Positions 11,760 through 51,421 of a stretch of DNA of 64,000 nucleotides are shown here, piece after piece. The position numbers and the translations under genes are program-made. Within the stretch, counting starts at the first letter, position 1. The number at the start of each line of letters is the position of its first letter. The stretch is from Acinetobacter calcoaceticus (GTDB taxonomy: Bacteria; Pseudomonadota; Gammaproteobacteria; Pseudomonadales; Moraxellaceae): positions 1,488,001 through 1,552,000 of the forward strand of contig NZ_LS999521.1 in the NCBI RefSeq assembly GCF_900520355.1, read 5' to 3'. A model generated the notes under the pieces. It made no database searches and was not told where the DNA came from. It saw only the letters and a list, made by a program, of their open reading frames with translations.

Positions 11760-11768
11760 GTTTAGGTG

Positions 11769-11803: not shown

Positions 11804-11806
11804 TTT

Positions 11807-12244
11807 TTATAATAAAAATTTCTCTAAAACGTCACGAGTAGACTCAGAAATTGGAATCGTTTTTCGGGTTTCACGGTCAACAAACACATGTAAAAAATGT
11901 CCTTGGGCTGAAGCTTGTTGTTGACCTTGTTTAAAGATTGCCAATTCATAACGCAGTGAAGTGTTACCGATTTTACCAATCGCAACGCCTACTTGAATAA
12001 TTTCTGGGAATGACAATTCTTGAAGAAAACTACAAGCTGAATCGACCACTAAGCCAATTGATTGTGATTGATGAATATCAAAACCTGTTTCTTGAATGAG
12101 TAAAGCATTTGCTGCTGTATCAAAATAGCTATAGTAAGTCACATTATTCACATGACCGTAGATATCGTTATCTGCCCATCGAGTTTGAATATCTAAAAAG
12201 AACTTAAATTGATCACGGGTTTTTAAAACGGGTTTAGTCATCAA
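11807..12244 (-). CDS. Acyl-CoA thioesterase, 4HBT/YbgC-like hot-dog (145 aa)
   Basis: The single hot-dog domain has the family's N-terminal signature Arg-Trp-Ala-Asp-Asn-Asp-Ile-Tyr-Gly-His-Val-Asn-Asn, with Asp as catalytic residue and the His-Val-Asn-Asn helix start, followed by Tyr-Phe-Asp. Such proteins cleave acyl-CoA thioesters in the cytoplasm. The start codon overlaps the stop of the upstream alcohol dehydrogenase by four bases (ATGA type), so the two are translationally coupled and likely act in one pathway. The substrate is unknown. Confidence 0.82.
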   Translation of the reverse strand: MMTKPVLKTRDQFKFFLDIQTRWADNDIYGHVNNVTYYSYFDTAANALLIQETGFDIHQSQSIGLVVDSACSFLQELSFPEIIQVGVAIGKIGNTSLRYELAIFKQGQQQASAQGHFLHVFVDRETRKTIPISESTRDVLEKFLL

Positions 12245-13404
12245 TGAATCGCCTGATAAATTGCCAAAGCAGCAGCTTCTGTCATGTCACGTGGGTTATT
12301 TTGCAGTAAGCGGGTTTGTAGCATGGCATCTTGCGCAAGCCTAGGTAAACTGGACTCTTCAATACCCAAATCTCTAAGTTTTAAAGTCAAACCACTGCGG
12401 TCTAAGTGGTTTTGCATATGATCAATAAACAAGTCACATAAACCGTCAGTGCTACCATTACTATATGGGTCTAGCCATTGCATAAGCTCTGCATAATATT
12501 GTTTGGCATTTGGCGTATTAAATTTTAAGACTTCAACCAATACTAAGGCATTGGTATGCCCATGCGATAAATGAAAATGCCCACCGAGTGGATAAGCCAA
12601 AGCATGCACAGCGGCAACTGGAGAATTAGCAAATGCCTGACCTGCAAGCATAGAACCGAAAAGCATGTTTTGTCGCGCTTCGAGGTCATTTTCATTCTTA
12701 AGCACTTTAGGCAAATTATGGTTCAGTAATTTCAAAGCATGTTTGGCTAAAATATCAGTATAAATATTCTTTTTATGTTTAGAGGTATATGCCTCAATGG
12801 CATGCACCATCGCATCAATACCCGTTGCAGCAGTAATATGAGCGGGTAAATTTTGAGTAAAGGTCGCGTCAAGAATTGCTGTATCGGCATAAAGCACTGG
12901 AGAGACAATTCCCATTTTAGTGGTTTCACCCGTTGTGACAATCGAAATTGGAGTGACTTCCGAGCCTGTACCCGCTGTAGTTGGAATTAAAATGAGCGGA
13001 AGACGAGTAGTTTTTATTTGATTTACGCCATACATGTCTTGCAAACTTTGAGTTTGGTCGGGGTGTGCCAACAAAGCAATTACTTTTGCAACATCTAAAG
13101 AACTACCACCACCAAAACCAATAATGGCATCTACATTTTGTTGTTTTGCATAATTGGCTGCATCTAATACCACTTGTTCCGGTGGGTCAGCCTGAACATC
13201 GGCATAAACGACATAATCAAGATTAAGCGTATCTAAAATTTGAAGAATGGGTAGGTGTAGCTGATTTTTGATCATTCCTGCATCGGTCACCAGTAATAAT
13301 TTGCCGTAACCTTTTTGTGCTAAAACATTCTGTAATTCTTGTATAGAGCCTAAGCCTGAGATGATATTTGGAACGGTTTGCAATTGAAAATGGCTCATAT
13401 ACAT
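12241..13404 (-). CDS. Iron-containing alcohol dehydrogenase (387 aa)
   Basis: This is a group III metal-dependent alcohol dehydrogenase. The NAD-binding segment GFGGGSSLDVAK is at about 96-107 and a later GTGSEVT segment is present. Metal ligands fit the Asp and three His of segments GIDAMVHAIEAY and HALAYPLGGHFHLSHGH. An AAGGGA ribosome site suits either ATG at 13404 or 13398, so the start is uncertain by two codons. An earlier codon would add seven more residues. The coupled downstream gene is a thioesterase. The alcohol or aldehyde substrate cannot be deduced. Confidence 0.87.
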   Translation of the reverse strand: MYMSHFQLQTVPNIISGLGSIQELQNVLAQKGYGKLLLVTDAGMIKNQLHLPILQILDTLNLDYVVYADVQADPPEQVVLDAANYAKQQNVDAIIGFGGGSSLDVAKVIALLAHPDQTQSLQDMYGVNQIKTTRLPLILIPTTAGTGSEVTPISIVTTGETTKMGIVSPVLYADTAILDATFTQNLPAHITAATGIDAMVHAIEAYTSKHKKNIYTDILAKHALKLLNHNLPKVLKNENDLEARQNMLFGSMLAGQAFANSPVAAVHALAYPLGGHFHLSHGHTNALVLVEVLKFNTPNAKQYYAELMQWLDPYSNGSTDGLCDLFIDHMQNHLDRSGLTLKLRDLGIEESSLPRLAQDAMLQTRLLQNNPRDMTEAAALAIYQAIH

Positions 13405-13586
13405 TATTCCCTTATTTTTGAACATTATTGTTGAACGGTTCTATAAGACTCAATCTTTAAATAACTTAGCATAAGACACTCTAAAATAAAGTAGTTCTGA
13501 AGTGATTATATTTTATGTTGTACGAGCTAATCACTATTTTTACGGGGTTGGATTGGGATGGTAGGGGGCGATCACGCAAGATGTTT

Positions 13587-13616
13587 AAAAGCTCATCGGA
13601 AGGTGGGCTTTTTGTT
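13587..13616 (+). terminator. Orphan intrinsic terminator, possible small RNA end
   Basis: AAAAGCTCA at 13587-13595 pairs with TGGGCTTTT at 13604-13612 (9 bp, one G-U) with an 8-base loop and a T tail. No coding gene on the plus strand ends nearby; the gene upstream runs the other way. The 280-base gap 13405-13699 otherwise shows nothing but this hairpin and a G-rich stretch at 13552-13570. Confidence 0.5.
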
Positions 13617-13699
13617 ATTTATACTGTTCGGTAGATTTTCCTGAAGGCTACTAATTCATATAATGCCCTAACAATTTATAATTTTATTTGGTTCAAAAA

Positions 13700-14053
13700 G
13701 TGAAAATTTCTAAAACTTTACTTAATCTTATTGGATGTACTTGTTTAATGCTGAGCTCCGCAGCAATGGCGAAAACTAGCTCTAGCGTCTATTCACCTAA
13801 AAAGGGTGTCATTTGTGACAAATATATCTGTGCTGACAAGAAGGGTGTATCTAAAAAACTTACAGCCAAATATTTAGGAACTAACAAAGCGAACAAAGCA
13901 TTCTCTCAAGGCGATTTTGATACCTCAGCATTTACACTCTCAAACGGCGTATTCTGTGATACAAAAACAAAACTATGTCATGTCGACCGATACTTTGAAA
14001 ATGGGCATCGTAGTAAAGTTGATAGAAAAATGACGGATAAACTTTTTAAATAA
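13700..14053 (+). CDS. YcgJ-family exported protein (117 aa)
   Basis: A signal peptide of about 23 residues ends in Ala-Met-Ala. The mature part is basic, has four Cys in two close pairs (Cys-x4-Cys near 32-37, and a second pair near 81-89), and resembles E. coli YcgJ, a small protein of unknown function. I choose GTG at 13700, which gives a normal signal peptide; TTG at 13688 would add four residues. No strong ribosome site is visible for either. The gene is alone, beside decayed sequence. Confidence 0.6.
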   Translation: MKISKTLLNLIGCTCLMLSSAAMAKTSSSVYSPKKGVICDKYICADKKGVSKKLTAKYLGTNKANKAFSQGDFDTSAFTLSNGVFCDTKTKLCHVDRYFENGHRSKVDRKMTDKLFK

Positions 14054-14178
14054 ATAATTCTTGTCTTAGTTTTAAAAAAAAGCCCTTAATGATTGGACTT
14101 TTTTCTAGATGAATATTTTAAATTGAATTTTAATAAAACGATTATTAAATATTAAAAATGAATCTAAAAAGTTAGGTG

Positions 14179-14345
14179 ATGAAAAAAATCTAATAAATTG
14201 TCTGATTACTTTTAGTGTTACTGGGTGTGTTTCCAATTAGCCTAAAGGTTACTTCATTAGAAGTAAAACCTAAAGATATTTATTTCATCCAGATGAGCCT
14301 AAAAGCTCAAAGGATAACCATTCATTTTATTATAGTGAAAATTAA
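14179..14345 (+). pseudogene. Remnant of a small lipoprotein gene
   Basis: ATG-AAA-AAA at 14179 is followed by stops, then, in shifted frames, by a lipobox-like stretch ending Thr-Gly-Cys-Val-Ser-Asn and by a C-terminal piece reading HPDEPKSSKDNHSFYYSEN before TAA. Several frame changes and stops are needed to join these. It looks like a decayed lipoprotein; the family is not recognised. Confidence 0.35.
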
Positions 14346-39197: not shown

Positions 39198-41438
39198 TTA
39201 CCATTTATGGCTATAAGAAACTTTAAGCGTTGCCCCATTTGCCACTAAATGGCTAGTGTTATCGCTAGTTCTTAATAATTGACTATAGAGAGGGTAGTAC
39301 TTACGATTAAACATGTTTTCTAAACCAATCGTCACAGTGTCTTTCTTGTTAAGCGCAAAGCTACTGATTAAATCGGCTGTTGTGTAAGACTTCACATCAT
39401 AGCGACCAAAACCATTTACACCATTTAAGCGGTAATCTTCTGAACCGAAGTAAGTTGCTTGTAGACGGTTGGTCCAAGTTTCTGTTGGACTATAAGAAAC
39501 GTAAGCTGTGAGTTTTAAAGGCGGTATACGGAAGCCCGTCATATCACGGTCTGTATCACTGCCTTGAGGTGTTTCGCGCCCCTTCATCCACGTTACACTA
39601 CCACCAGTTCCCCAAACATTTGCATCATTAAGATAGTCAACAGTTGCTTCAACACCAGTTACTTTTTCTTTTGTTCTAGCAAGCACCAGACCATTGTTGA
39701 AAGATTGCACAGCCCCAAGATCAGATGTTGAGTGGAATACCGCTAAACTTGATGAGAAGTTATTGAAATTACCTTTCCAGCCCAGTTCGTAGTTATCAAC
39801 TTTTACAGGTTCTAAAAATGATGAGCCAAGGTTAAAACCTTCACCAGCATTACGGATAATTAAACCTACATCAGGCAACTGAAAACCTTGGTTAAACGAT
39901 GCATAGATCGAGTTTTGATCATTTGGAGAAAAGGTCACATTAGCATTGTATAACCATGCACCAGCTTTCACTTTTCCGCCTGGAACAGTGTAAGGGTTGG
40001 TCTTACCTAATTGTGATAATGGAACAAAACTATCAATTTGCGCATAGCTGTCTTCATAGCGTGTACCTGCTTCAGCTGACCATTGGTCATTAAAGCGGTG
40101 TTTTAACTGTATAAAACCGCCAACACTTTGCGTGGTGAGTTCGGGTAAATAAATGAGCTTGCCAGTTTTTACAAATTCTAGACCACCTGATTGATCATAA
40201 ATTTGAGGGTCAAAAATATCTAAAGGCATTTCGCTTTTTTCACGGCTGAAGTCACCACCCCAAACCAATGATGTATCGCCTAAAAACTCAAGTGGTGTTG
40301 TAACAGTTAAGCGGCTACCGAGTACATTATTTTCTTGATAAATCTGGTCGACTTGTTTGCCACGGTTCGCATTTCCACGAGCATCAAATGGTGAAAAACG
40401 GGTAAAGAAGTCGCGGTAATAAATTTGAGCATCAACCTTATTACCCAATAAGTCTTTATTGGTATAGGTTAAATTGTATATTTGGTTTTCATTTTTATTT
40501 TGGTCTTTAAGCTTTAATCCTTTGATGGCTTTCGCTGGCACAGTTCCAACTGGAGCTTTTTTTACACTTGGGTCAGATGCATAATCTGAGTCTTGCTCGG
40601 CATTATAGTAGTTTGCTGCGAATTGTAGGTATTGATTGTCATCAATGTGATAACCAAGCTTACCGCCTACGCTGTAGCCATCGGAATCATAAAGGTCGCC
40701 CTGACTTGGTTCAGGTGCAACACGATCACCACTTGCATCGTACGGACTACCAATACGTTGATAACCAAAGTCGAGTGCATAATCAAAAGCGTTAAAGCTG
40801 CCTGTGAAATATTGATGAATATCTCCGCTTAGGGCATTAGAACGGAAATTTGTTAAAGGTGTTTGAAGTCCAACTACAGTGTTTGCTGTAGGTTCGCCAC
40901 CCGCAGCTTTCGTGGTAATTGAAATAATACCGCCGGCAGCACCGCCGCCATAAATTGCATTACTGCCTCGAATGACTTCAATGTTGGCAATACTTTCTGG
41001 GTCAATTGAGGAAAGTCCGCGTGAAGTATCTCGTGTTAAGTTCATCGGCACGCCATCAACCAAGATGAGGGCATTACGACCACGCAAAGTTTGACCGTAA
41101 TCGGTAATAGTACGGCTTGAGTCAGACAGGCCCGGTACAGCTTTTGCTAATACAGTCGCAATACTTCCAGATGAACCATTTCTTAAAAGTTCAATTTGTT
41201 TTTCATCTAGCTTGGTGACTTGCTTGGCAGAAGTAGAGAGTTCATCTGCACGTGAAGCGGAAATTGTAATTGTAGGAAGTGCTTCGGGCTTTTTTTCTGT
41301 TTCTGTTGGCTCAGAGGGTGAGACCGCGAAAGCAGAGTTTGAAAGAAAGATGAATCCACTAAGTGAAAGAAGTGGAATGATATTTTTTACTTCAGACTTT
41401 CTTGTAAAAAGTTTATTACTTTTTATCTTATTTCCCAT
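39198..41438 (-). CDS. TonB-dependent siderophore receptor (746 aa)
   Basis: A long signal peptide ends near Ala38 (SAFA). It is followed by a TonB-box candidate (residues 54-60, about LPTITIS), a plug domain with LRGRNALILVDGVPM and IEVIRGSNAIYGGGAAGGIISI, and a 22-strand barrel. The final residues Tyr-Ser-His-Lys-Trp give the C-terminal aromatic. It resembles receptors for carboxylate or hydroxamate siderophores. A Fur box lies 40 bases upstream of the start codon. Its position beside the synthesis operon suggests it imports that siderophore. Confidence 0.9.
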   Translation of the reverse strand: MGNKIKSNKLFTRKSEVKNIIPLLSLSGFIFLSNSAFAVSPSEPTETEKKPEALPTITISASRADELSTSAKQVTKLDEKQIELLRNGSSGSIATVLAKAVPGLSDSSRTITDYGQTLRGRNALILVDGVPMNLTRDTSRGLSSIDPESIANIEVIRGSNAIYGGGAAGGIISITTKAAGGEPTANTVVGLQTPLTNFRSNALSGDIHQYFTGSFNAFDYALDFGYQRIGSPYDASGDRVAPEPSQGDLYDSDGYSVGGKLGYHIDDNQYLQFAANYYNAEQDSDYASDPSVKKAPVGTVPAKAIKGLKLKDQNKNENQIYNLTYTNKDLLGNKVDAQIYYRDFFTRFSPFDARGNANRGKQVDQIYQENNVLGSRLTVTTPLEFLGDTSLVWGGDFSREKSEMPLDIFDPQIYDQSGGLEFVKTGKLIYLPELTTQSVGGFIQLKHRFNDQWSAEAGTRYEDSYAQIDSFVPLSQLGKTNPYTVPGGKVKAGAWLYNANVTFSPNDQNSIYASFNQGFQLPDVGLIIRNAGEGFNLGSSFLEPVKVDNYELGWKGNFNNFSSSLAVFHSTSDLGAVQSFNNGLVLARTKEKVTGVEATVDYLNDANVWGTGGSVTWMKGRETPQGSDTDRDMTGFRIPPLKLTAYVSYSPTETWTNRLQATYFGSEDYRLNGVNGFGRYDVKSYTTADLISSFALNKKDTVTIGLENMFNRKYYPLYSQLLRTSDNTSHLVANGATLKVSYSHKW

Positions 41439-41477
41439 TTTCTCGCCCTGAGAGTGATTTTAAATTGAGCGAATTAT

Positions 41478-41496
41478 AAATGAGAATCATTGTAAT
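41478..41496. promoter_or_regulatory. Fur box of the receptor gene
   Basis: AAATGAGAATCATTGTAAT matches the core of the Fur consensus (GATAATGATAATCATTATC) around AGAATCATT. It lies in the 155-base gap between the receptor and the end of the synthesis operon. Confidence 0.75.
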
Positions 41497-41593
41497 TAAC
41501 AACATTATTAATTGCTGAAAAAATAATATATTTGAAATTTATTCAATGAATTAGGGGAATAGGTATTTATTCCCCCAAAAAATTGAATAGCGA

Positions 41594-42370
41594 TCAGATT
41601 TCTTTGAAGGTATTTAAATGATTTTGATGGGCACGGCGAATAATGCTTCGGTCATCACCGAGTACAAAAAGCTGAACAGATTGTTGTTTCCAAGCTGTTA
41701 TATCTTCTGGCTTTCGGGGAATTGCGCAGAAATACTTATTGCTCATTTTTGTCTTTACATACATCTTTTGGACTTTTTCTTTGACCTTCGGATGGCTGGT
41801 TTCCCATGGTATTCCCATAGACTGAGAAAGGTCGGCTGCACCTTCAAGAATAATATCAATGCCGTCAACTTTTAAAATTTCATCAAGATGTTCTAGTCCT
41901 TCCAGGCTTTCAATCATGGCAACCACAACCGTCTCGTTTTTCGCTTGTTGAACAAAACTGGCTAAATCATCAATGCCATATCTATTTAATCTTGTCGAGT
42001 TAAGACCTCTTTGCCCAAGCGGCATATAGTGGCAATAATTCACAGCTTCTCGTGCCTGCTGGGCATTTTCAATACGCGGAAAAACAATGCCTGTTACCCC
42101 TGCATCAAGCAGAGGTAGAACTAAATGGTTGGCGTTTAAAGGCACTCTGACAAAAACATCAAGACTCATGGCTCTAGCGGCTAAAATCATGGTCTCGACT
42201 TGGGACGTGGTAAATAAAGTATGTTCTAAGTCGATAATAATAAAGTCATAGCCCGCAAGTGCCAGTTGCTCGACATTAATCGGAGACACTACGGAACAAA
42301 ATATTCCGTAGAGCGTCTCGCCATTTGCTATTCGTTTCTTAAAAGAAATCGAATATTTATTCATATTCAA
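41594..42370 (-). CDS. SbnG-like citrate synthase, HpcH/HpaI aldolase fold (258 aa)
   Basis: Residues follow the class II aldolase pattern: IIIDLEHT (about 45-52), VRVPLNA, then LDAGVTGIVFPRIEN (about 88-102) and MIESLEGLEHL. Length matches SbnG of Staphylococcus aureus (about 259), which condenses oxaloacetate with acetyl-CoA to supply citrate to the siderophore independently of the TCA cycle. It lies last in the operon and its start overlaps the double-NIS gene stop by 14 bases. An ATG two codons later is an alternative start. The context of SbnA-, SbnB- and SbnE-like genes makes this assignment stronger than fold alone. Confidence 0.83.
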   Translation of the reverse strand: MNMNKYSISFKKRIANGETLYGIFCSVVSPINVEQLALAGYDFIIIDLEHTLFTTSQVETMILAARAMSLDVFVRVPLNANHLVLPLLDAGVTGIVFPRIENAQQAREAVNYCHYMPLGQRGLNSTRLNRYGIDDLASFVQQAKNETVVVAMIESLEGLEHLDEILKVDGIDIILEGAADLSQSMGIPWETSHPKVKEKVQKMYVKTKMSNKYFCAIPRKPEDITAWKQQSVQLFVLGDDRSIIRRAHQNHLNTFKEI

Positions 42371-45300
42371 TTTCCTTAATGAGACTTAGCGGGTTTGGTA
42401 TGGTTTGTACTCTTAGGCGAATTTCCGGAAGGAAACGACGGCTTGCTAATTGTTCAATATCAATGGTGTCATCTGTAAAGTTGAACAATTCATATCGCTC
42501 GGCAAACTCTGGATGAGCTTCCTTGTGCTGATTGATGACGGTTCTTAACATGGTCCAGAATTTGATTTCATCGAAGTCATAATGCTCATTTAAGAAAATC
42601 GCTAACTCTGCCAAATTTACAAACCAAAGCGCATCTTGAGTAAAGTCTCTTAACTCATTTGGAGAATGGGTTTCCAAGAATGAGTTTGGGTTAATTTTGG
42701 CATGCTCTTTTGGCGCATCTTGTAAATTTGGTAGAAGGTCTGGCTCACGTAAAAGATGACGACTAAAACGAATCCCATCGTGGAAGTCTTTCAAAGCAGC
42801 TTTAACTGGTAAGCCATTTTTATGAATCAGAACCATATTTTGCGCATGTGACTCTAAAGCTAAGCCATGGCACCACAAAATATGCATGATAGGTAAATAA
42901 GCATTGGTGAGTAACTTTTCCAACCAGAACTCGATACCGTATTCTTGAATCCATTCATCAATTAGAGGCTTTTGGTCAATGTCGACTTGCATGAGGCCAG
43001 TTACCGGTGTTGCCGATTCACCTTCTTTTAAGTAACTGTAAATACTTTCGCGCCAAATGCAGGCGAGTGCGCCGTATTGAACAGGTAAAGCAATTTGCTG
43101 CTTAACTGAAAGTCCAGCAATCTCTCTTAAAATAACAGGCTTGCGATGCTTTTCTAAAATATGGTCTTGCTCGACAATTTTATAAAGCCAGTCACTCATT
43201 TTTGCAGCATTTTGAACGGTATGCGGTGCCAATACACGAGATGTAGATGTATTTACCAAATTCATTGCCAACTTGAGAGAAAGCGCTGAGATATCACTAA
43301 TATTCGATAAAGTTCTGATCGATTGCTGTGGTAAATAAGTTGGACCTTCAATATCTAACGGGATGATGAGTTGGTTGCTAATTGCATCTTGATAATATAA
43401 TTCAATAATTTTATCCCACTGCCACGGATGAATTGGGGTGAGGATATATTCCTGAAAATCTACATTGTTATCTTTTAATTGATCACTAATTGCTTGTAGA
43501 TCTTTTTCTGAAAAATGCTGTTTATAAAGCTGCTCTAAGTTAATCGTTTCGCTTAAAACTAATTTACACAGACTGTTATGAGTCGCGACCCATTTGACTG
43601 GAAAGCCTTCAGAAAGCTCAGGTGCATATTTTTGGTTTTCTTTTAAATCGAAGCCGATACGAGACTTAAAACTCGGATGATATAGGTGTGCATTGGTAAT
43701 TCGTGCTTCTTGTTCTAGGTAAGGCAGGGTTCTTAAAGGTTGAGCAGGTGCTTGGCTTAAAGTCTGCGCATGTTTAACGTAAGTTAAATTGAGTTCATCA
43801 TTAAAGTTTTGCCATTTAACTGGGTCAGCTTCAATAATATTTTTTAGATCGGCAAGTAGCATTTTTAAGTTAGGGCGAGTTTCAGCGCCCAAAGTAATAT
43901 CAGAACGGACTAGGCTTAAAGGATCTAACTTAATTCGTTTAAAGCTGAAATGTCGTTTAGCGGCGCATGTATAGAAAACTGTATCTGAAATATAAAACTT
44001 GATCTGACCTTTAGAAAGTTCATATTTAAAGGTATTTTCAAAAATGAGCGCTTCTAATAATTGGCTCATCACGCGATTTTCTGCAAGAGTCTTATAGTTG
44101 GCTTGCTGTGTCGGCTGAAGAGGGCAAAGGGCTTCTGCGCCGCGATATTTATAAATAGGGTTTTCAACTTCAATCCAGATTGGATTGCCACCACTGTGGT
44201 AGAGCGTATTTAACATATTTGCCTTGATTGGTAGTGTGAGTGAATTAATTAATAAATCGCGGTAGTGCTGGCCTTTGGCGGTAAATTTTTCTTGTGTGAG
44301 CGTAAGGCGTGTGGCTTCCCAAAGTTCAGATTCTTCAATCACCGTAACTCGCGCAATTGCACTGATGAGATGCGCAATGTGATTGATCACGAGGTAATAT
44401 TTTAAAAAGGTCCAAGCATCTTTTTGAGAGAACCAAACGGTACTATCTTCAGAAATAGATGAGTCATCTTCTATCATTTCTGGAACAATACTAATGCCTT
44501 CCATATCTCGAAGAATAAGGCGATGTGGATAGCCATTTTTAAATTCCATTAAACTGTTTTGCATATGGGCTTCTACGCTAATGCCTTTATTTGCAAACAA
44601 CTCAACTAATGGAATAAGTGAAACTTTAACGTACTGTTTCCACCAAAAAGTAATAAAGTCTTTAGCATCGTTCGATTGTAAATTTTGGTTGGGTGCAGCT
44701 TGCTGAATAAAGCTTAATAGAGGAATTTCATGATGTTCGTTTTCTTCGACCAAGCCACCGAGCATTCTGGTATTTTCTAGTACATCAGGTGTAAGTCCAG
44801 CTCTATAAATAATGCCAAATGAACTCTCAAGCTCTGGAATTTTGACTGTTTTCGCCTCTAACTCTGGCAGAATAACAAGGTCTGGATATTGCTCATTAAT
44901 CTTGTGATTAATAATAATTTTGCTTGCATCAATTGCTCGTTCCATTTCATCCATTGGATTATTACGAATGAAACTGGTAATTCGCACATCAATTGAGAGC
45001 TTTAAGAATAGGTTCGATTGAGGTAACCACACCGTGCGAACGGAGGAGGTTGGCCATACGGTTTGGCCTAATGCACCCAGATGTATGATTTCTTGACTGT
45101 CTAAATGTTTCTTTAAAGACGAGTGTTGAAGCAAGAAATTGGCTTGCCACGGATGGGTCGGCATGAGCTCATAATTTGCTAAGTTCTCTTGCAAACGCTC
45201 TTTTGCAGTTTCTAAAACTTCGTTTTCAATACGATTAGATGGCTGCTCTTCGCTTACAAGCTTTTCGATTAAAGAAGAATGAACTGCAAAGTAGTGGAGT

Positions 45301-45884
45301 TGAAAACTTGCGCCTAACTCTGGGCTATACTTGTTCATGTCTTCTTTCGAAAAACCTAAATTGGCTTTCGAGGTCACATGAAAAGGATGTCCATATAGCA
45401 TTCCTTGTTCAGTAGCTTGAAAACCACTCAGCTCTTTAGATGTTGTTAGGGATGGTTTATTTTCTAAAAAGAATTTTGTGTTCTCGATACTATTGGCAAT
45501 ATCGGAATAAAGGTTCTTGTTTTGGTTTTTGTCTTTGAATAGGTTATTTAACTCATCTGTAATGAGCTTCACCAAATTTTTAGGATCAGTTAGCGAGTCA
45601 AATGTATTTTCGCTTAAGTTTTGCAGAGCAAAGCCACGCTGATATCGATGATAGCCAGTGGTGGAGAAGTGTTGAACTGCTCCGTAAACAATCGTATTAG
45701 ACGCACTAAACGTATAAGAAAAATAGATCGAGTTAGGCTGTTCTGCATATATTGTGAATAAAGGAGAATCTTGAGCTGAGATAATGTGCTCTTCAAGATC
45801 TACTTTAAGTTCGCGAAAGAAAGTATTCAGGTACTGTTCGAAAAGTTTATAAGACCATGCATCGGTTGTAATAATTGAGTTCAT
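42357..45884 (-). CDS. Double NIS siderophore synthetase, two IucA/IucC modules fused (1175 aa)
   Basis: Two complete IucA/IucC-type synthetase modules lie in tandem, about 1-590 and 600-1175. Each has the ATP-binding His-Pro segment (GHPFHVTSKANLGF near 168-181; YHPSFKSRIGF near 760-770), a Thr-His-Pro-Trp-Gln or Ile-His-Pro-Trp-Gln motif, the SxRT segment (TSSVRTVWLP; QQSIRTL) and a C-terminal FerR/FhuF-like domain. Each family member is normally a separate 580-620-residue enzyme that adenylates a carboxylate and joins it to an amine. By analogy with staphyloferrin B the modules replace SbnF and SbnC, adding the second diaminopropionate and 2-oxoglutarate. Its start overlaps the exporter stop (ATGA). 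Confidence 0.9.
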   Translation of the reverse strand: MNSIITTDAWSYKLFEQYLNTFFRELKVDLEEHIISAQDSPLFTIYAEQPNSIYFSYTFSASNTIVYGAVQHFSTTGYHRYQRGFALQNLSENTFDSLTDPKNLVKLITDELNNLFKDKNQNKNLYSDIANSIENTKFFLENKPSLTTSKELSGFQATEQGMLYGHPFHVTSKANLGFSKEDMNKYSPELGASFQLHYFAVHSSLIEKLVSEEQPSNRIENEVLETAKERLQENLANYELMPTHPWQANFLLQHSSLKKHLDSQEIIHLGALGQTVWPTSSVRTVWLPQSNLFLKLSIDVRITSFIRNNPMDEMERAIDASKIIINHKINEQYPDLVILPELEAKTVKIPELESSFGIIYRAGLTPDVLENTRMLGGLVEENEHHEIPLLSFIQQAAPNQNLQSNDAKDFITFWWKQYVKVSLIPLVELFANKGISVEAHMQNSLMEFKNGYPHRLILRDMEGISIVPEMIEDDSSISEDSTVWFSQKDAWTFLKYYLVINHIAHLISAIARVTVIEESELWEATRLTLTQEKFTAKGQHYRDLLINSLTLPIKANMLNTLYHSGGNPIWIEVENPIYKYRGAEALCPLQPTQQANYKTLAENRVMSQLLEALIFENTFKYELSKGQIKFYISDTVFYTCAAKRHFSFKRIKLDPLSLVRSDITLGAETRPNLKMLLADLKNIIEADPVKWQNFNDELNLTYVKHAQTLSQAPAQPLRTLPYLEQEARITNAHLYHPSFKSRIGFDLKENQKYAPELSEGFPVKWVATHNSLCKLVLSETINLEQLYKQHFSEKDLQAISDQLKDNNVDFQEYILTPIHPWQWDKIIELYYQDAISNQLIIPLDIEGPTYLPQQSIRTLSNISDISALSLKLAMNLVNTSTSRVLAPHTVQNAAKMSDWLYKIVEQDHILEKHRKPVILREIAGLSVKQQIALPVQYGALACIWRESIYSYLKEGESATPVTGLMQVDIDQKPLIDEWIQEYGIEFWLEKLLTNAYLPIMHILWCHGLALESHAQNMVLIHKNGLPVKAALKDFHDGIRFSRHLLREPDLLPNLQDAPKEHAKINPNSFLETHSPNELRDFTQDALWFVNLAELAIFLNEHYDFDEIKFWTMLRTVINQHKEAHPEFAERYELFNFTDDTIDIEQLASRRFLPEIRLRVQTIPNPLSLIKEIEYE

Positions 45885-47086
45885 TCTTGTGCCTCTTTTA
45901 AAATTGTATCCATTAAGAATCTGTTCAAAATCACCACTAATCCCGCACCGATAAAAAATAGTGAGGTGCAGATTAATGCAGCAGTAATATTGAAAAATGA
46001 GTAGGTTAGCGTGATAGTGATCGGACCAAAAAGTTGGCCTAAGACAAAAGCACTGTTAGAAATGCCAATCACTTTTCCTTGGCTTTGACTGCCAGCTTTT
46101 AGAGAAATCGTGTGTAAGATCGAAGGAATAAGCGCTGCAAAGCAAAAACCTTGTATGAGTCGTAATACGAGAATGAGCCAGAGATTAGACACCCATACCA
46201 ACGCGAAAATCGTGATGCCACAAATTAAAGATGCATAAACGAAGTTATTAAAAGAATCTCCTTTATCATCATTTCTTTTTCCCCAATAGGTTGCCGCAAT
46301 AAAAGCCGCTCCCCATGAAAGCGCATGGATTGTGCCTGTTAAACTTGCAGCAGATAACGATGAGTGAATGTTTTGGCTTATTTCACTAATGTATAGAACG
46401 AAGCAAGACACTAGACCAAAGCCACCGGCTTGAACCAAAATACCGGCGCTTAACCATGAAAAAATTGTTCTATCAAAAAAGTCTGGAATTTTAGATTTTT
46501 CTTTGGTTTTTACAGCCTCAGTTTTAACAGGATTGGCTAATAAAAAGGATGCGATCACAATTAATGTAACTACAATAAATGCAGTTGCATTGAGTAATAT
46601 TTCAACCCGCCAGTGGTCTATAAATATACCGCCAAGCACGGGACCACATAGGCAAGCTAGTGCAACACTACTTTGTAGTTGCCCAAAAGCGGCACCTCGT
46701 TGTTGTTCATTAGAAAGATATGAAACATAGGCATTCAAAATGACTGAGAGACCGCAAAAACCGAGTAAAATTCGCGCGAAAATAAATACGAATAAATGCT
46801 GTGCGCTAGCCATGAGCAGTATTGAAATACAAAAACCAGCCAGTGAAAGTAACAAGGCTTTTTTATGGCCAAACGTATCTGCTAAATGACCAACAATCGG
46901 TGCTGTAAATAAACTGCCAATAGCCGGAGCCGCGAGTGCCAAACCTGCCCAGATAGTGGGAGCACTCATATGCGCCGTCAGTTTTTCCATATAAAGCGGC
47001 ATGATCGGAATAAGCACCATGAGCCCGAAAGTGGAAAAAAACTGGCAGAGCAAAATAATGAAATGATCTAGGCGAGATGAGCGCAT
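45881..47086 (-). CDS. MFS siderophore exporter, SbnD-like (401 aa)
   Basis: Twelve hydrophobic helices and the MFS loop 2-3 signature GHLADTFGHKKALL (about 65-78) are seen. It resembles 12-TM drug efflux proteins. In this operon it is expected to move the finished siderophore across the inner membrane. It lies three bases after the first NIS gene and overlaps the double-NIS start by four bases, so expression is tightly coupled. Confidence 0.87.
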   Translation of the reverse strand: MRSSRLDHFIILLCQFFSTFGLMVLIPIMPLYMEKLTAHMSAPTIWAGLALAAPAIGSLFTAPIVGHLADTFGHKKALLLSLAGFCISILLMASAQHLFVFIFARILLGFCGLSVILNAYVSYLSNEQQRGAAFGQLQSSVALACLCGPVLGGIFIDHWRVEILLNATAFIVVTLIVIASFLLANPVKTEAVKTKEKSKIPDFFDRTIFSWLSAGILVQAGGFGLVSCFVLYISEISQNIHSSLSAASLTGTIHALSWGAAFIAATYWGKRNDDKGDSFNNFVYASLICGITIFALVWVSNLWLILVLRLIQGFCFAALIPSILHTISLKAGSQSQGKVIGISNSAFVLGQLFGPITITLTYSFFNITAALICTSLFFIGAGLVVILNRFLMDTILKEAQE

Positions 47087-47089
47087 GAT

Positions 47090-48784
47090 TTAGATATCCA
47101 TGGTCTCATAGCTAGAAACAGATAAGCTGTGATAAGGGTTTGGCGTGCTTCCTATTTTGCTTGGCATTCCTGTTGAGTCGCTTTCTTGAGCGAGTAAAGG
47201 CGTAAGTAGCTGTTTGAATGGCCAAGTTTTATTGTCGAAAAGATAGGTTTGAATCTGGGATTTTGTCTGTTCTGAAATCGGTTGGGTTTCTACAAAATCT
47301 TGAATAATGTCTTGAACCATTTCCCAGAAATCGCTTTCTGAACGATCTGTATATTTCAAGGTAGCTAAAGCAATTGGGTAGAGGTTAATTTGAATCCCTA
47401 ATGTGATGAAGTAATTAAATAAGTCTTCATTTCTAGTAAAGATAAGATTGTTCGGCGTACTCGTGTCGATGGTATAGGTTGGAGGTGTGAAGCCACTTTC
47501 TTCAATTGCTGTCGTACATATTCTTAATGTATCGTGGTCACGTAAAATAAAGCATTTGAACTTATTATTTTCATAACACACCATGGTGTTTTGCCCATGG
47601 CATTCAGGCATGATTCCTTTTGCCCAAAGCGTTAAGAATGTTTGAATAAAATGGACACTTAGATCTTTTAATAGTGTCCATTTATCACCTTCAACGCCTA
47701 AAGCTTCCCAAGGGTCAACATAAGTACAGCTTAAAGCTGACATGGTAATTGGGGTGACGTCTTTATCTTGGCAAAAATCGGGTAGGTGCCTTACTTGGCA
47801 ACCGATTACACCTAAATTTTTTACAATGTGCTCTTGTTTACCCAGTACCCACCAGTGAGTTTCATTACTCAAAAAGAGACGATTTTTTAATAAAGGCGTT
47901 TCATTAATGACTTCATTTAAAAAATCATATGCCCTGTGACCATTCATTAAATAACGTCCCGGCATAGAACGGATCGCACCTAATGTTTTGGCATTCGTTG
48001 ATAGTTTTAAATGTAGATTAGGGTTTGCGTTATGAATAAGCGTTCTTAAAGATGAGGTCGGTAAACCAATTGTCGTGACATGGATCAGGTCAATACCGTC
48101 ATACTTATTTTCTTCAAATTTTAAATAGCGATGTTGAGTCTCTAGTAAAGGAAGGGCTAAGTAGTCATCTGAAAGCTCGGCCATTTTTTCAGTAATATTA
48201 TTGTCCTCAGCTTCTGATAACAGAAGCTCTTTATGAGGAATCGAATCCATATTGTTGATCACGTCATCTTTCTTAAAAGCCCACCAATACACTTCAATTT
48301 CTTTTTGAGTTGTGAGTGGTGCGAGTTCACCTTTTGAGTGGGCGAACGGATGAAATGGACGATCAGCAACTAGAGAGAGCAATTCACTTGTAATTAAAGG
48401 TGAGGAAAATGAAAGTGCTGACTGTAAAATTTGAGGGATTTTTTCAGCCGTTACTAAGTTGTCGAGCCAATAGTCAATTGCCTTTTGATGATGAGGTGAG
48501 GGCCACCAAGATGCTTTTGTTAAATAAGTAAAAACTTCAGAAATAGAAATTTTAGAAGTCGTATTACTCAAGAGGTTGTGAAGCAAAACTTCGGGTTGAG
48601 TAACGCAGAAAGGATTTACACCATCTACTTTTAAACAGCTGAAATAGAGTTCCGATGCATGATTTAGAGTAATTGCCAAATAAGGCTTTTTATAGGAAAT
48701 ATGATCTCTAAAATTTCCATAATTCTCCATGTAAAGGGCATCTATCGTTTTTTGTAGTTGAGCTGTGTAAATCCGATCTAACAT
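47090..48784 (-). CDS. NIS siderophore synthetase, SbnE-like (564 aa)
   Basis: A single IucA/IucC module. The ATP-binding segment DRPFHPFAHSKGEL lies near 165-178, TSSLRTL is the SxRT motif (near 248), and GIMPECHGQNTMV with the FIL-RDHDTLRI segment forms the catalytic C-terminal lobe. It resembles SbnE, which joins citrate to L-2,3-diaminopropionate as the first assembly step. ATG 48784 with an AGGAA ribosome site is preferred. An upstream start would overlap the SbnB-like gene and add 25 residues of a different character. Confidence 0.88.
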   Translation of the reverse strand: MLDRIYTAQLQKTIDALYMENYGNFRDHISYKKPYLAITLNHASELYFSCLKVDGVNPFCVTQPEVLLHNLLSNTTSKISISEVFTYLTKASWWPSPHHQKAIDYWLDNLVTAEKIPQILQSALSFSSPLITSELLSLVADRPFHPFAHSKGELAPLTTQKEIEVYWWAFKKDDVINNMDSIPHKELLLSEAEDNNITEKMAELSDDYLALPLLETQHRYLKFEENKYDGIDLIHVTTIGLPTSSLRTLIHNANPNLHLKLSTNAKTLGAIRSMPGRYLMNGHRAYDFLNEVINETPLLKNRLFLSNETHWWVLGKQEHIVKNLGVIGCQVRHLPDFCQDKDVTPITMSALSCTYVDPWEALGVEGDKWTLLKDLSVHFIQTFLTLWAKGIMPECHGQNTMVCYENNKFKCFILRDHDTLRICTTAIEESGFTPPTYTIDTSTPNNLIFTRNEDLFNYFITLGIQINLYPIALATLKYTDRSESDFWEMVQDIIQDFVETQPISEQTKSQIQTYLFDNKTWPFKQLLTPLLAQESDSTGMPSKIGSTPNPYHSLSVSSYETMDI

Positions 48785-48801
48785 TTTAGTTATTCCTATT
48801 C

Positions 48802-49815
48802 TTATAAAAGTGGTAGAACCGTGCCAACGTTTTGTTCTTGTGCGGCATTGAAGAACCACTTAGCGCAAACAATATCGTCAATCGCCATGCCCATTGGGTT
48901 CAGCAAAATGATTTCATCTTCATGTTCGCGACCATTTTTATGGCCAATAATGATGTCGCCAAGTTCGGCATGCAGTTTTTCACGGCTGAATAAGCCATCT
49001 TCAACCAGTACGTTGATGACTTTCTTTTCTCGGTTTGATTGGTCCCAGTCATCTACAATCACTTTGTCAACTTTTAAGAACACTTCAGGTTCAATATCCA
49101 TAATTGAAATATTGGAAACAAAGCAGCCCTTTTTAAGCCACTCAAACGGGATGTAAGGCTTATCTGAAACGGTACAGGTAATCAGCACATCTGCTTGCTG
49201 AATCGCAGACTTGGCACTGTCATGAATTTCAATTTCTAGATGTGGATATTCTGATAAGAACAATGCTTTGAGTTTTTCGGCAGCTTCAGGGTTCACATCA
49301 AATAAATGTATTTTTTTCACTTGAGCGTATTGTTCAAGTACAGTCTTAATCTGCATTTGAGCAATTGGTCCGCAGCCAATCACGGTAATGTCTGAAAAGT
49401 CTTTTTTCGCTAGATATTTAATCGAAACACCAGTAATTGCAGCAGTTCGCATTGCGCTAATTAAGCTGCCTTCCATCACTGCGACTGGGTAATTTGTTTC
49501 TGAATCATTCAGAACAATAAGCGCGCTGGCACGTGGAATATTGAATTTTTTAGGGTTATGTTGTCTTGAGCCAATCCATTTGATTCCAGCAATCGGGTCA
49601 TTGCCGCCTAAATAACAAGGCATTGCAATAATACGGTCAGCAATATGATCTGCACCTTGCCAGCGGAGGTAAGGTTTTAAGGGTTGTACAAACTGTTTAT
49701 TTGCATGCAGGGTTAAACCTTCGGTAATCGCTTCAATAAATGAATTGCTATGATTTGCGCCAAGATTTAATAAATCTGATTGACTCAGGTAACGAAGGGT
49801 AGCCAAATTGCTCAT
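48802..49815 (-). CDS. SbnB-like N-(aminocarboxyethyl)glutamate dehydrogenase (337 aa)
   Basis: This belongs to the ornithine cyclodeaminase/mu-crystallin family, with the NAD-binding segment VIGCGPIAQMQ near 145-155 and the conserved MPCYLGG and ITGVSIKYLA segments. SbnB oxidatively splits the SbnA product to L-2,3-diaminopropionate plus 2-oxoglutarate, both building blocks of staphyloferrin B. It lies 21 bases after the SbnA-like gene and 17 bases before the first NIS synthetase, which supports that role over ornithine cyclodeaminase. Confidence 0.87.
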   Translation of the reverse strand: MSNLATLRYLSQSDLLNLGANHSNSFIEAITEGLTLHANKQFVQPLKPYLRWQGADHIADRIIAMPCYLGGNDPIAGIKWIGSRQHNPKKFNIPRASALIVLNDSETNYPVAVMEGSLISAMRTAAITGVSIKYLAKKDFSDITVIGCGPIAQMQIKTVLEQYAQVKKIHLFDVNPEAAEKLKALFLSEYPHLEIEIHDSAKSAIQQADVLITCTVSDKPYIPFEWLKKGCFVSNISIMDIEPEVFLKVDKVIVDDWDQSNREKKVINVLVEDGLFSREKLHAELGDIIIGHKNGREHEDEIILLNPMGMAIDDIVCAKWFFNAAQEQNVGTVLPLL

Positions 49816-49836
49816 GAATATTTCCTAAGGAGAGGG

Positions 49837-50841
49837 TTAAACAACATTTTGTAAAGTAAGGTTTTCTTGACGTCGTAAGTTTCGATTGAAGTGACGTTTT
49901 TTGATCATTTCGAACCACTCATCTGCATAAACGAGATCTAGATAACGATCGCCTCGATCAGGCAGCAGCGTTAAGACACATGAACCTTCAGGAATGGTTG
50001 GAATGAGTTTTTTTATGGCTGAAATAGATGAGCCGCTGGAGCCGCCTGCAAAGATTCCTTCATGTTCAAGGAGTTCTCTGCAACCGACTGCTGACTCATA
50101 GTCATCTACATAAATGACATCATCAATTTCATCGGGAGAGAGTAGAGGGGGAACAGTACTTGCACCGATGCCAGGAATCTCGCGTGGACCAGAGGTGCCA
50201 CCAAACAAGACAGAGCCGACAATATCGACTGCAATCACTTTTAATTCGGGGAACTTTTCTTTAAGGCGGCGGGATACGCCCATAATCGTGCCAGAGGTAC
50301 TTGCTCCAATCACGAGGTAATCAATTTTGCGATCTATTTGATTTATGATTTCTTCTGCTTCACCAAAATAGTGGCTTTTCCAGTTGTTTGGATTTGCGTA
50401 TTGATTAATCCATACAGCATTTGGTAATTGTTCACATAGTCGCTTTACAGTATCAATTCTGGTTTTTAAATAGCCTCCATTTTGATCTTTCTCAGAGACC
50501 ATATGGATATTGGCTTTGTAGAGCTTCAACATTTGTAAGTTTGCTGAAGCAATTTTAGGGTCAATAACGGCAGTAAATTTTAACCCATATATTTTGCATG
50601 CCATTGCGAGTGCGATGGCCAAGTTCCCTGAAGAACTTTCAACAATATGGCTATCTTTATTAATTGCTCCAGATTTTAGACCTTCCTGTAACATGAATAA
50701 TGCTGGACGGTCTTTAATACTTCCTCCTGGGTTTAACAATTCCATTTTCGCAATCACTGAGATCGATTGATGCGTGAATAGCCTTGATAATTGTAATAGT
50801 GGCGTTTTACCTATGCAGTCGAGAATATTTTCATGGATCAT
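49837..50841 (-). CDS. SbnA-like N-(aminocarboxyethyl)glutamate synthase (334 aa)
   Basis: This is a PLP enzyme of the cysteine synthase fold. The PLP lysine is Lys43 in GGSIKDRPA, with the ESSSGNLAIALAM loop and phosphate-binding GASTSGT segment. SbnA condenses O-phosphoserine with glutamate. The first gene of the operon, immediately downstream of a Fur box, next to the SbnB partner. The GTSGPREIPGIGAS segment differs from housekeeping cysteine synthases, which supports SbnA. Confidence 0.87.
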   Translation of the reverse strand: MIHENILDCIGKTPLLQLSRLFTHQSISVIAKMELLNPGGSIKDRPALFMLQEGLKSGAINKDSHIVESSSGNLAIALAMACKIYGLKFTAVIDPKIASANLQMLKLYKANIHMVSEKDQNGGYLKTRIDTVKRLCEQLPNAVWINQYANPNNWKSHYFGEAEEIINQIDRKIDYLVIGASTSGTIMGVSRRLKEKFPELKVIAVDIVGSVLFGGTSGPREIPGIGASTVPPLLSPDEIDDVIYVDDYESAVGCRELLEHEGIFAGGSSGSSISAIKKLIPTIPEGSCVLTLLPDRGDRYLDLVYADEWFEMIKKRHFNRNLRRQENLTLQNVV

Positions 50842-50871
50842 GGTAGATCTTCTCAGGTTTTTATGTGATGT

Positions 50872-50906
50872 GAATGATAATGATTATTAATTAAATTATC
50901 ATTACT
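50872..50906. promoter_or_regulatory. Fur box of the siderophore operon
   Basis: GAATGATAATGATTATTAA (50872-50890) contains two forward and one inverted copy of the GATAAT hexamer. Another AAATTATCATT element lies at 50894-50904. It starts 31 bases upstream of the SbnA-like start codon. Confidence 0.82.
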
Positions 50907-51421
50907 ATTTGTGACAAGATTGTTGCGGTTTGTAATATGAAATTGAGGGTATTTATAGGATTTTTCACTAATTTTTTTTAAGTAATTATTTGAATCGTAA
51001 TGTTTATATTTTATAGATGAGTTAATTAATAAACTTTTTAAATATAAGTAGATAGGCAGGAAATTACTTTTTGCTAAAAAAATAATTTAATGAGCATATG
51101 GTTTTGTAAATTAAAAGTGTTTTAAAAAATTAAAGTGGAAACCTATTCTGATTAACCTAATTTGCATGCCATTTTTTTCTGTGTTTATTAAGATTTTTAT
51201 AGGAAGGAGTGGTAGGCAGAAAGTGCAATTTGCACTGCTTTTTAAAATTATAAGAATGGTAGAACGAAATTGATCAAGTGGCAGTTATTGATATGAAAAT
51301 GTCTGAAAATGATAAATTTAGATGGCTATGATGAGTTCTATAAGCGCTATATTTTGAATGGATCAATTGAGTCCAGAAAGTATAGTAATGCGTGTTTCGC
51401 ATTTTGTCTTATGGGTCTTTC
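50907..51421. other. AT-rich gap between the siderophore operon and nasS
   Basis: No gene of normal size is seen. A perfect small palindrome AGTGCA-ATT-TGCACT lies at about 51221-51235, and the region ends in a strong plus-strand terminator, which suggests a short transcript. Confidence 0.45.

What the first reader, a model, noticed from the sequence alone, without database searches (positions are those of the whole stretch)
41594..50841. Staphyloferrin-B-like siderophore operon without a decarboxylase and with two synthetases fused
Seen: one SbnA-like, one SbnB-like, one SbnE-like NIS synthetase, an MFS exporter, a 1175-residue double NIS synthetase, and an SbnG-like citrate synthase, tightly overlapped. 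Known: staphyloferrin B synthesis also needs SbnH, a PLP decarboxylase acting between the first and second condensation. No such gene lies between 39 and 52 kb. Inference: either a decarboxylase elsewhere in the genome serves the pathway, or the product keeps the carboxylate and is a new diaminopropionate-citrate-2-oxoglutarate siderophore. The fusion of two NIS modules could channel the intermediate.
Basis: partly seen in the sequence, partly recalled or inferred. Interest (0 to 1): 0.75.

Follow-up and report, generated by a model that had tools for sequence, protein, structure and literature searches.

The report
Staphyloferrin-B-type operon that lost its decarboxylase
A group of Acinetobacter species carries a staphyloferrin-B-like iron-scavenger operon that has lost the usual decarboxylase gene, and the enzyme module that would have fed that decarboxylase has changed at the site that recognises its usual substrate, so these bacteria probably build in a ready-made diamine and make a new siderophore.

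Summary
A seven-gene minus-strand operon (39,198-50,841) encodes SbnA, SbnB, an SbnC-type synthetase (not SbnE-like), an MFS exporter, an SbnE+SbnF fusion, an SbnG-like protein and a TonB receptor. There is no SbnH, and the complete 3.93 Mb genome holds one decarboxylase of that fold, LysA.

In the seven closest fused operons sbnH abuts sbnG. All ten Acinetobacter loci of the named scan lack it, inside an otherwise SbnH-bearing clade, so SbnH was probably lost there.

In the same lineage the first-condensation (SbnE) module lost the arginine equivalent to AcsD R501, which recognises the acceptor's carboxylate: Phe in 14 of 14 Acinetobacter rows, Arg in 72 of 72 others. Switches at deeply conserved sites concentrate there (6 of 93; SbnF module 0 of 113).

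Best reading: citrate is joined to a carboxylate-free amine, probably 1,3-diaminopropane, so SbnH became redundant. A carboxylate-retaining product is less likely. SbnH's absence was footnoted in print in 2011 and an SbnE-SbnF fusion reported in Methylobacterium in 2022; nine searches found no account of an acceptor switch. The product is unproven.

The parts
49837..50841 (-). SbnA-like L-Dap biosynthesis enzyme (PLP, 334 aa), first gene
   Evidence: TIGR03945 437.7 bits, cut-off 349.95; PDB best match SbnA 5d84
48802..49815 (-). SbnB-like dehydrogenase, L-Dap biosynthesis (337 aa)
   Evidence: TIGR03944 402.5 bits, cut-off 326.9
47090..48784 (-). SbnC-type NIS synthetase (2-oxoglutarate attachment inferred); the listed ORF runs to 48859 with a GTG start, ATG at 48784 more likely
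   Evidence: NF033583 SbnC 253.5 bits, below its cut-off of 700; only PDB match 7cbb, E 6e-52; several close relatives 562-572 aa
45881..47086 (-). MFS exporter, SbnD position (401 aa)
   Evidence: PF07690; same position in relatives
42357..45884 (-). Fused SbnE+SbnF NIS synthetase (1175 aa)
   Evidence: PF04183 and PF06276, two stretches each; full-length relatives from 95% down to about 31% identity
44145..45884 (-). N-terminal module (residues about 1-580), SbnE/AcsD type, first condensation; AcsD R501 equivalent is F493, other switched sites S304, F485, I553, N559, G566; E438, H440, N443, D460 and K554 kept
42357..44084 (-). C-terminal module, SbnF type, second condensation with L-Dap (inferred)
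   Evidence: NF033586 490.4 bits, below its cut-off of 900; 0 of 113 deeply conserved sites switched
41594..42370 (-). SbnG-like aldolase-family protein, citrate synthase candidate (258 aa, TTG start)
   Evidence: PF03328; same position in relatives
41439..41593 (.). 155-bp intergenic stretch where sbnH stands in the closest relatives; no SbnH-HMM match in the window; Fur-box-like sequence similar in carriers
39198..41438 (-). TonB-dependent siderophore receptor, RhtA-like (746 aa)
   Evidence: PF00593/PF07715; TIGR01783 256.9, cut-off 223.5; NF052649 RhtA 264.2, cut-off 1100 not met
50870..50910 (-). Fur-box-like promoter sequence upstream of sbnA
   Evidence: seen, similar in carriers; not significant on its own (49 of 500 shuffles as good)

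Best explanation
This is a probably iron-regulated siderophore operon of the staphyloferrin B (sbn) kind in which the decarboxylation step has been bypassed by a change of substrate. SbnA and SbnB make L-Dap and 2-oxoglutarate, and the SbnG-like enzyme makes citrate. In ordinary sbn operons the SbnE enzyme joins citrate to L-Dap and SbnH then removes the carboxylate. Here the SbnE half of the fused synthetase has lost the pocket arginine that recognises that carboxylate and is proposed to join citrate directly to a carboxylate-free diamine, most likely 1,3-diaminopropane from the unlinked Dat-Ddc pathway. The SbnF half then adds L-Dap to the other end of citrate, and the SbnC-type enzyme adds 2-oxoglutarate to the free amine. 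The MFS protein exports the product and the TonB receptor takes up its ferric complex. Predicted product: a one-carbon-longer homologue of staphyloferrin B, C17H26N4O11, [M+H]+ 463.167. Shown: gene content, genome-wide absence of an SbnH-type gene, its absence from the Acinetobacter copies of an otherwise SbnH-bearing clade, purifying selection, the lineage-specific change of the SbnE module. Inferred: that the acceptor lacks a carboxylate (about 0.6), that it is 1,3-diaminopropane (about 0.4), and the product structure.
For: (1) No SbnH-type gene in the complete genome; 11 of 13 carrier genomes have one PF02784 protein, LysA by score and length (family-tested only in the window's genome), and two have a second one that is not a clear SbnH (see against). 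(2) 60 of 75 loci of the named scan have the decarboxylase; the 15 without are all 10 Acinetobacter loci, L065/L098/L105 (contig ends near), L107 and L108. In the 7 closest fused operons sbnH overlaps or abuts sbnG. (3) In a tree of 11 Acinetobacter copies and 49 SbnH-bearing loci the Acinetobacter copies lie inside the gammaproteobacterial fused clade, whose support is 1.0. (4) In AcsD, R501 recognises the acceptor's L-carboxylate; R501K cuts L-serine use 14-fold but keeps ethylenediamine (PMC3323832). The equivalent is Phe in 14 of 14 Acinetobacter rows and Arg in 72 of 72 others, and Arg in 202 of 209 proteins of a wider set; the 7 with Phe are P0001-P0006 (five named Acinetobacter, one unnamed at 79% identity) and P0035. 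(5) Deeply conserved sites switched in Acinetobacter: SbnE module 6/93, SbnF module 0/113, the five other genes together 7/374 (Fisher p 0.008 against SbnF, 0.0096 against all the rest). (6) The module is not decaying: dN/dS 0.06-0.09, catalytic residues kept. (7) Ddc is in all 13 carriers; Acinetobacter makes 1,3-diaminopropane by Dat and Ddc (PMC10267138, passages). (8) AcsD is reported to take 1,3-diaminopropane or ethylenediamine (PMC3323832). (9) Precedent: rhizoferrin synthetases use putrescine directly, or ornithine followed by a citrylornithine decarboxylase (PMC7857480, passages). (10) In A. oleivorans DR1 sbn induction coincides with CAS activity (PMC5658608, passages).
Against: AcsD R501A was inactive with every nucleophile tested, so loss of the arginine alone does not predict a working enzyme (IucA, however, has Tyr in this column). 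AcsD prefers a two-carbon spacing; L-2,4-diaminobutyrate, with three, was used only just above background, so 1,3-diaminopropane would need a remodelled pocket. All Acinetobacter copies probably descend from one event, so the link between SbnH loss and pocket change is a single coincidence, and the Fisher tests ignore phylogeny. The excess is confined to the most conserved sites: at an 80% threshold the SbnC gene is switched as often (10/93) as the SbnE module (10/114), and against only the seven closest relatives the SbnE module is not faster than the SbnF module (16/216 vs 20/218). The sister group inside the fused clade is poorly resolved (support 0.34), and loci without a decarboxylase outside Acinetobacter were not in the tree. 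One carrier (G016) has a second decarboxylase that scores 226.7 on my SbnH HMM, above LysA (152.7) but below AcsE (410.0). No structure model could be made. Baumannoferrin BfnA-type enzymes keep Arg, and their acceptor was not established here. CAS activity in DR1 is not specific, because DR1 also has an acinetobactin cluster.
Confidence: 0.5

Rival explanations
1. One reading: L-Dap is still the first acceptor, nothing is decarboxylated, and the product is a carboxy-staphyloferrin B (C17H24N4O13, [M+H]+ 493.141), possibly with two 2-oxoglutarates.
For: No SbnH-type decarboxylase in the genome; L-Dap genes are in the operon; K554, the probable equivalent of AcsD K563, which may also contact the acceptor carboxylate, is kept; AcsD accepts L-Dap.
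Against: The Arg that recognises the carboxylate is lost in the SbnH-less lineage and in no other row examined; the SbnF module, which would have to accept a bulkier, more charged intermediate, shows 0 of 113 deeply conserved sites switched, and the SbnC gene 2 of 64 (F397L, V491I).
Confidence: 0.17
2. True staphyloferrin B is made because another decarboxylase acts in trans, on citryl-Dap or on free L-Dap giving ethylenediamine: LysA, Ddc or an enzyme of another fold.
For: AcsD accepts ethylenediamine; the genome has LysA and one group II decarboxylase, Ddc; decarboxylase families other than PF02784, PF00278 and PF00282 were not searched.
Against: LysA sits with dapF and passes the LysA model; Ddc sits next to Dat and best matches L-2,4-diaminobutyrate decarboxylase, though below that model's cut-off (386.9 against 900). 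If citryl-Dap were decarboxylated in trans, the first module would have no reason to lose the carboxylate-binding Arg; free ethylenediamine from Dap would remain compatible.
Confidence: 0.15
3. The first acceptor is a carboxylate-free compound other than 1,3-diaminopropane, for example ethanolamine, putrescine or a modified polyamine.
For: The pocket changes say only that carboxylate recognition was altered; ethanolamine is an AcsD substrate, slower than L-serine.
Against: 1,3-diaminopropane is reported as the major Acinetobacter polyamine (title of a reference and passages in PMC10267138), so it is the simplest source.
Confidence: 0.13
4. The operon is a decaying relic without product.
For: A gene needed in other sbn operons is missing; dN/dS of the first module is somewhat higher than that of the second (0.06-0.09 vs 0.03-0.06).
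Against: All seven genes intact in the carriers looked at, dN/dS 0 to 0.14 wherever it could be computed; same order in A. stercoris at 66% identity; Fur-like promoter boxes similar across carriers; operon induced and culture CAS-positive in DR1.
Confidence: 0.03

Closest known systems
Staphyloferrin B (sbnA-H) operons: S. aureus, Ralstonia, Cupriavidus, Methylobacterium
   Same: SbnA, SbnB, SbnC-, SbnE- and SbnF-type synthetases, MFS exporter and SbnG-like gene; same order in Cupriavidus L073 and Methylobacterium loci
   Different: No SbnH in operon or genome; the SbnE module lacks the carboxylate-recognising Arg found in 49 of 49 SbnH-bearing background loci
Fused SbnE-SbnF operons of Marinomonas, Marinobacter, Zobellella, Pseudoalteromonas, Rheinheimera
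   Same: Same fusion and gene order, 43-51% identity; same clade in the tree
   Different: They continue with sbnH overlapping or abutting sbnG and keep Arg, Tyr, Asn and Glu at four of the switched sites
Acinetobacter oleivorans DR1 sbn operon (PMC5658608; PMC3179956 Table 4)
   Same: Probably the same operon; sbnH absence footnoted in 2011; induced on alkane together with CAS activity in 2017
   Different: The passages read here give no product, no account of the missing step and no acceptor-site analysis
Direct-putrescine rhizoferrin route (Ralstonia pickettii) versus citrylornithine + FigC (Francisella)
   Same: Same logic: a ready-made diamine removes the need for a citryl-amino-acid decarboxylase (PMC7857480, passages)
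   Different: One synthetase and a symmetric product there; three synthetase modules and L-Dap here
Achromobactin AcsD/AcsE
   Same: AcsD is the structural model for the first module; AcsE is the counterpart of SbnH
   Different: AcsD uses L-serine and keeps R501; an achromobactin-like cluster with an AcsE-like decarboxylase occurs in another Acinetobacter (L025)
Baumannoferrin (bfn) cluster
   Same: NIS siderophore of Acinetobacter; in three genomes looked at, a bfn-like cluster stands beside the orthologous receptor (L029, L039, L040)
   Different: Different gene set, with a monooxygenase gene (list) and no SbnA/SbnB match

Membership tests
Staphyloferrin B (sbn) pathway | L-Dap supply by SbnA and SbnB | tested here: met
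   Both pass the curated NCBIfam equivalog cut-offs
Staphyloferrin B (sbn) pathway | Three NIS synthetase modules of SbnE, SbnF and SbnC type | tested here: met
   By best match and operon position; the cut-offs of NF033586 and NF033583 are not reached
Staphyloferrin B (sbn) pathway | Citryl-Dap decarboxylase SbnH | tested here: not met
   Absent from operon and complete genome
Staphyloferrin B (sbn) pathway | First synthetase recognises the L-Dap carboxylate (R501-type Arg) | tested here: not met
   Phe in 14 of 14 Acinetobacter rows; a residue, not an assay
Staphyloferrin B (sbn) pathway | SbnG citrate synthase | tested here: inconclusive
   PF03328 protein in the SbnG position; activity-defining residues not examined
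Staphyloferrin B (sbn) pathway | Product is staphyloferrin B | not testable with these tools
   Needs mass spectrometry
RhtA siderophore receptor | Passes the RhtA model NF052649 | tested here: not met
   264.2 bits, cut-off 1100; it passes the general TonB siderophore receptor model TIGR01783 (256.9, cut-off 223.5)
Direct-diamine NIS route (rhizoferrin-like logic) | First synthetase uses a free diamine without a decarboxylase | tested here: inconclusive
   Indirect only: SbnH absence plus change in the first module; no enzyme assay

The most novel reading that the evidence does not exclude
The Acinetobacter operon makes a new siderophore, a 1,3-diaminopropane homologue of staphyloferrin B, because the first synthetase module changed its acceptor from L-Dap to the genus's own main polyamine; the decarboxylase was then lost and central polyamine metabolism was wired into siderophore assembly.
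Probability: 0.4. Interest if true: 0.68.

Novelty: new variant of a known kind. Interest (0 to 1): 0.56.

Why it matters
A missing step noted in a 2011 table footnote becomes a testable mechanism with one mass to look for (m/z 463.167) and one gene to remove (ddc). If true, it is a natural case of a siderophore pathway dropping an enzyme by changing the acceptor of the enzyme before it, it ties the amine specificity of a synthetase to a few pocket residues, and it names a likely uncharacterised siderophore of the Acinetobacter calcoaceticus-baumannii complex and its receptor.

Tried and rejected
Rejected: that the fusion explains the missing decarboxylase (fused relatives keep SbnH). Rejected: an SbnH copy in the window or a PF02784/PF00278 copy in the genome other than LysA. 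Rejected: the single NIS as SbnE-like. Not pursued: the change at SbnA residue 229 (Arg in 49 of 49 background loci), whose role is unknown to me.

Led nowhere: the strict Fur consensus with up to 3 mismatches gave 0 matches in the window, and the best 19-mers are weak against shuffles (49 of 500 and 16 of 500); only similarity across carriers speaks for them. Comparison with the seven closest relatives alone gave no excess for the SbnE module. The 2009 AcsD structure paper was not held.

Dropped or uneven rows: background loci for the conserved-site scan were limited to the 49 with SbnA, SbnB and a decarboxylase; for NISs and SbnG 44 of these, and for MFS 48, gave a sequence. In the wider R501 check 223 proteins went in (105 and 118 further ones from the 120 listed of 209) and 209 covered the region. 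Rows are not independent: some genomes appear twice, as locus and as protein (for example P0006 and L049, P0019 and L052). The receptor count rests on seven scored candidates per genome.


Full report
WHAT IS THERE. The window lies at 1,488,001-1,552,000 of a complete one-contig genome of 3.93 Mb. The closest named matches to the fused protein are Acinetobacter calcoaceticus (95% and 97%). On the minus strand, from 50,841 down to 39,198, stand sbnA, sbnB, an SbnC-type NIS synthetase, an MFS exporter, a 1175-aa double NIS synthetase, an SbnG-like aldolase-family gene and a TonB receptor. SbnA and SbnB pass the curated family cut-offs. The first half of the double enzyme matches AcsD best in the PDB and the second half the SbnF family. 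None of the synthetases reaches the cut-offs of the SbnC and SbnF models. So all three synthetase types of staphyloferrin B are present, and only SbnH is missing.

IS THE DECARBOXYLASE REALLY MISSING? Yes, for its own family. PF02784 and PF00278 find one protein in the genome, LysA next to dapF. An HMM made from 17 operon-encoded SbnH homologues finds nothing in the window. Among 13 carrier genomes, 11 have one PF02784 protein; I tested its family only in the window's genome and take the others as LysA by score and length. The second protein of G016 (L122) is a LysA-type decarboxylase fused to an acyl carrier domain that scores 226.7 on my SbnH HMM (LysA 152.7, AcsE-like protein of L025 410.0); that of G019 (L123) is a partial LysA-like match scoring 57.7. 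The 2011 paper on L-Dap synthesis already marks the sbnH homologue as missing from the operon of Acinetobacter sp. DR1 (PMC3179956, Table 4 and its footnote, seen as passages; the footnote mark is garbled in the text version, and I match it to the double asterisk of the DR1 row).

WHERE IT CAME FROM. The fusion is not special to Acinetobacter. Full-length relatives at 41-51% identity occur in Marinomonas, Thalassomonas, Pseudoalteromonas, Rheinheimera and others. A fusion was reported in Methylobacterium aquaticum 22A, where the sbnH mutant is CAS-negative (PMC9301485, passages). In the named scan 75 loci were kept, the best 80 of 127 matches. Of these 75, 60 have an SbnH/AcsE-type gene and 15 do not: all ten Acinetobacter loci, three with a contig end close by (L065, L098, L105), L107 (Microbulbifer) and L108 (Brevibacillus, without SbnA and SbnB in the stretch). 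In the seven closest fused operons sbnH overlaps or abuts sbnG. In a tree of four proteins from 11 Acinetobacter copies and 49 SbnH-bearing loci, rooted on actinobacteria, the Acinetobacter copies lie inside the gammaproteobacterial fused clade (support 1.0); their immediate sister is poorly resolved (0.34; 0.97 one node deeper). The other loci without a decarboxylase were not in that tree. The simplest reading is loss of SbnH on the Acinetobacter stem. The operon's fused gene is in 13 of 149 genus genomes sampled, the window's own included, 12 at 93% identity or more and one at 67%. Pairwise dN/dS of the window's genes against nine named carriers is 0 to 0.14 in all seven genes where it could be computed (for A. 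stercoris synonymous sites were saturated or nearly so).

THE NEW CLUE. In AcsD, R501 and K563 are held to recognise the L-configured carboxylate of the acceptor and E442 is the proposed general base; R501K keeps ethylenediamine but is 14-fold poorer with L-serine, and R501A is dead (PMC3323832, parts 1 and 2 of 4 read). The window's N-terminal module aligns to AcsD with E438 = E442, H440 = H444 and F493 = R501; K554 stands where K563 is expected (my placement by motif). Position 493 is Phe in all 14 Acinetobacter rows and Arg in all 72 others, AcsD included (some genomes appear twice). In a wider set it is Arg in 202 of 209; the seven with Phe are P0001-P0006, of which five are named Acinetobacter and P0004 is unnamed at 79% identity, and P0035, an Acinetobacter-like protein in a nematode record. 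Sites conserved in at least 90% of the SbnH-bearing background and fixed differently in all Acinetobacter rows number 6 of 93 in this module, 0 of 113 in the SbnF module, 2 of 64 in SbnC, 2 of 98 in SbnA, 1 of 128 in SbnB, 2 of 56 in SbnG and 0 of 28 in the exporter. With 11 other clades (partly overlapping) as foreground none gave a comparable excess in the SbnE module over the SbnF module: the nearest are Actinobacteria (3/100 against 1/120) and the single divergent Aliiroseovarius locus (6/96 against 5/119, with most of its other genes strongly switched or missing).

RESULTS AGAINST. At an 80% threshold SbnC is switched as often (10/93) as the SbnE module (10/114), and relative to the seven closest relatives alone the module is not unusual (16/216 against 20/218), so the excess is confined to the most conserved sites. 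The copies probably represent one evolutionary event, and the Fisher values (0.008-0.01 at the 90% threshold; 0.0007 at 95% and 0.005 at 100%) ignore phylogeny. The module is not degenerating (dN/dS 0.06-0.09, against 0.03-0.06 for the second module).

HOW IT PROBABLY WORKS. The module whose product SbnH would decarboxylate lost its carboxylate-recognising residue in the same lineage that lacks SbnH, while the next module shows no switch at its deeply conserved sites. The simplest account is that the first acceptor no longer has a carboxylate. Acinetobacter makes 1,3-diaminopropane by Dat and Ddc (PMC10267138, abstract and passages). A Dat-Ddc pair lies at about 1,076,346-1,079,254 of this genome; Dat passes its family cut-off, Ddc best matches L-2,4-diaminobutyrate decarboxylase below that model's cut-off (386.9 against 900), and Ddc is in all 12 other carriers at 89-100% identity. 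AcsD itself is reported to use 1,3-diaminopropane or ethylenediamine. The rhizoferrin pathways show the same choice between a free diamine and a citryl amino acid plus decarboxylase (PMC7857480, passages). The predicted product is C17H26N4O11, [M+H]+ 463.167 (formula by me, mass). The identity of the amine is inference.

IS IT IN PRINT? Nine paper searches were made. Printed: the DR1 operon and its induction on long-chain alkane with CAS activity (PMC5658608, passages), the SbnH footnote (PMC3179956, passages), a cluster line for A. pittii S-30 (PMC11089254, passages) and the Methylobacterium fusion (PMC9301485, passages). In these and in the passages read of PMC7595644, PMC10483418, PMC9162365 and PMC3554770 I saw no product structure for this operon and no account of the missing step; most subscription papers are not in that library.

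VERDICT. The carboxylate-retaining product is possible but less likely than a carboxylate-free amine. It works like a staphyloferrin B pathway with a substrate bypass; it is not filed as a staphyloferrin B pathway, because two defining features were tested and not met.

Noticed in passing
L029 3927-6707; L039; L040: Beside the orthologous receptor these genomes carry a baumannoferrin-like cluster instead of the sbn operon; L040 and L029 also have an ORF of about the size of the window's UmuC-like neighbour. L029 keeps a 128-aa SbnG-like remnant and a receptor split into two ORFs, as if one siderophore cluster had replaced the other.
   Followed up: partly
window 39198-41438 and genus genomes: The receptor orthologue (E <= 1e-200) is in 28 of 149 genus genomes, of which 13 have the fused synthetase; 15 have the receptor only, three of them with a short match, so many species may take up a siderophore they do not make (seven candidates scored per genome).
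   Followed up: partly
L107 (Microbulbifer litoralis) 2346-14296: A rearranged sbn-like operon without SbnH in the locus; the genome's only two PF02784 proteins look like LysA and SpeA by score and length. It keeps the R501-type Arg, so it is a better candidate for a carboxylate-retaining product.
   Followed up: partly
P0069, P0087 (Paenibacillus): NIS synthetase domains together with decarboxylase domains PF02784/PF00278 in one protein.
   Followed up: no
P0035: A protein in a Ditylenchus dipsaci (nematode) record is 74% identical to part of the first module and carries its Phe; probably Acinetobacter contamination.
   Followed up: no
window 49837-50841, SbnA residue 229: Arg in 49 of 49 SbnH-bearing background loci is Thr in all 11 Acinetobacter rows; S. 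aureus SbnA also has Arg there (alignment).
   Followed up: no
L122 2783-5951 (G016): LysA-type decarboxylase (passes TIGR01048, 316.4 against 297.9) with a C-terminal acyl carrier domain beside a 522-aa gene; among 13 carriers only this genome showed it.
   Followed up: no
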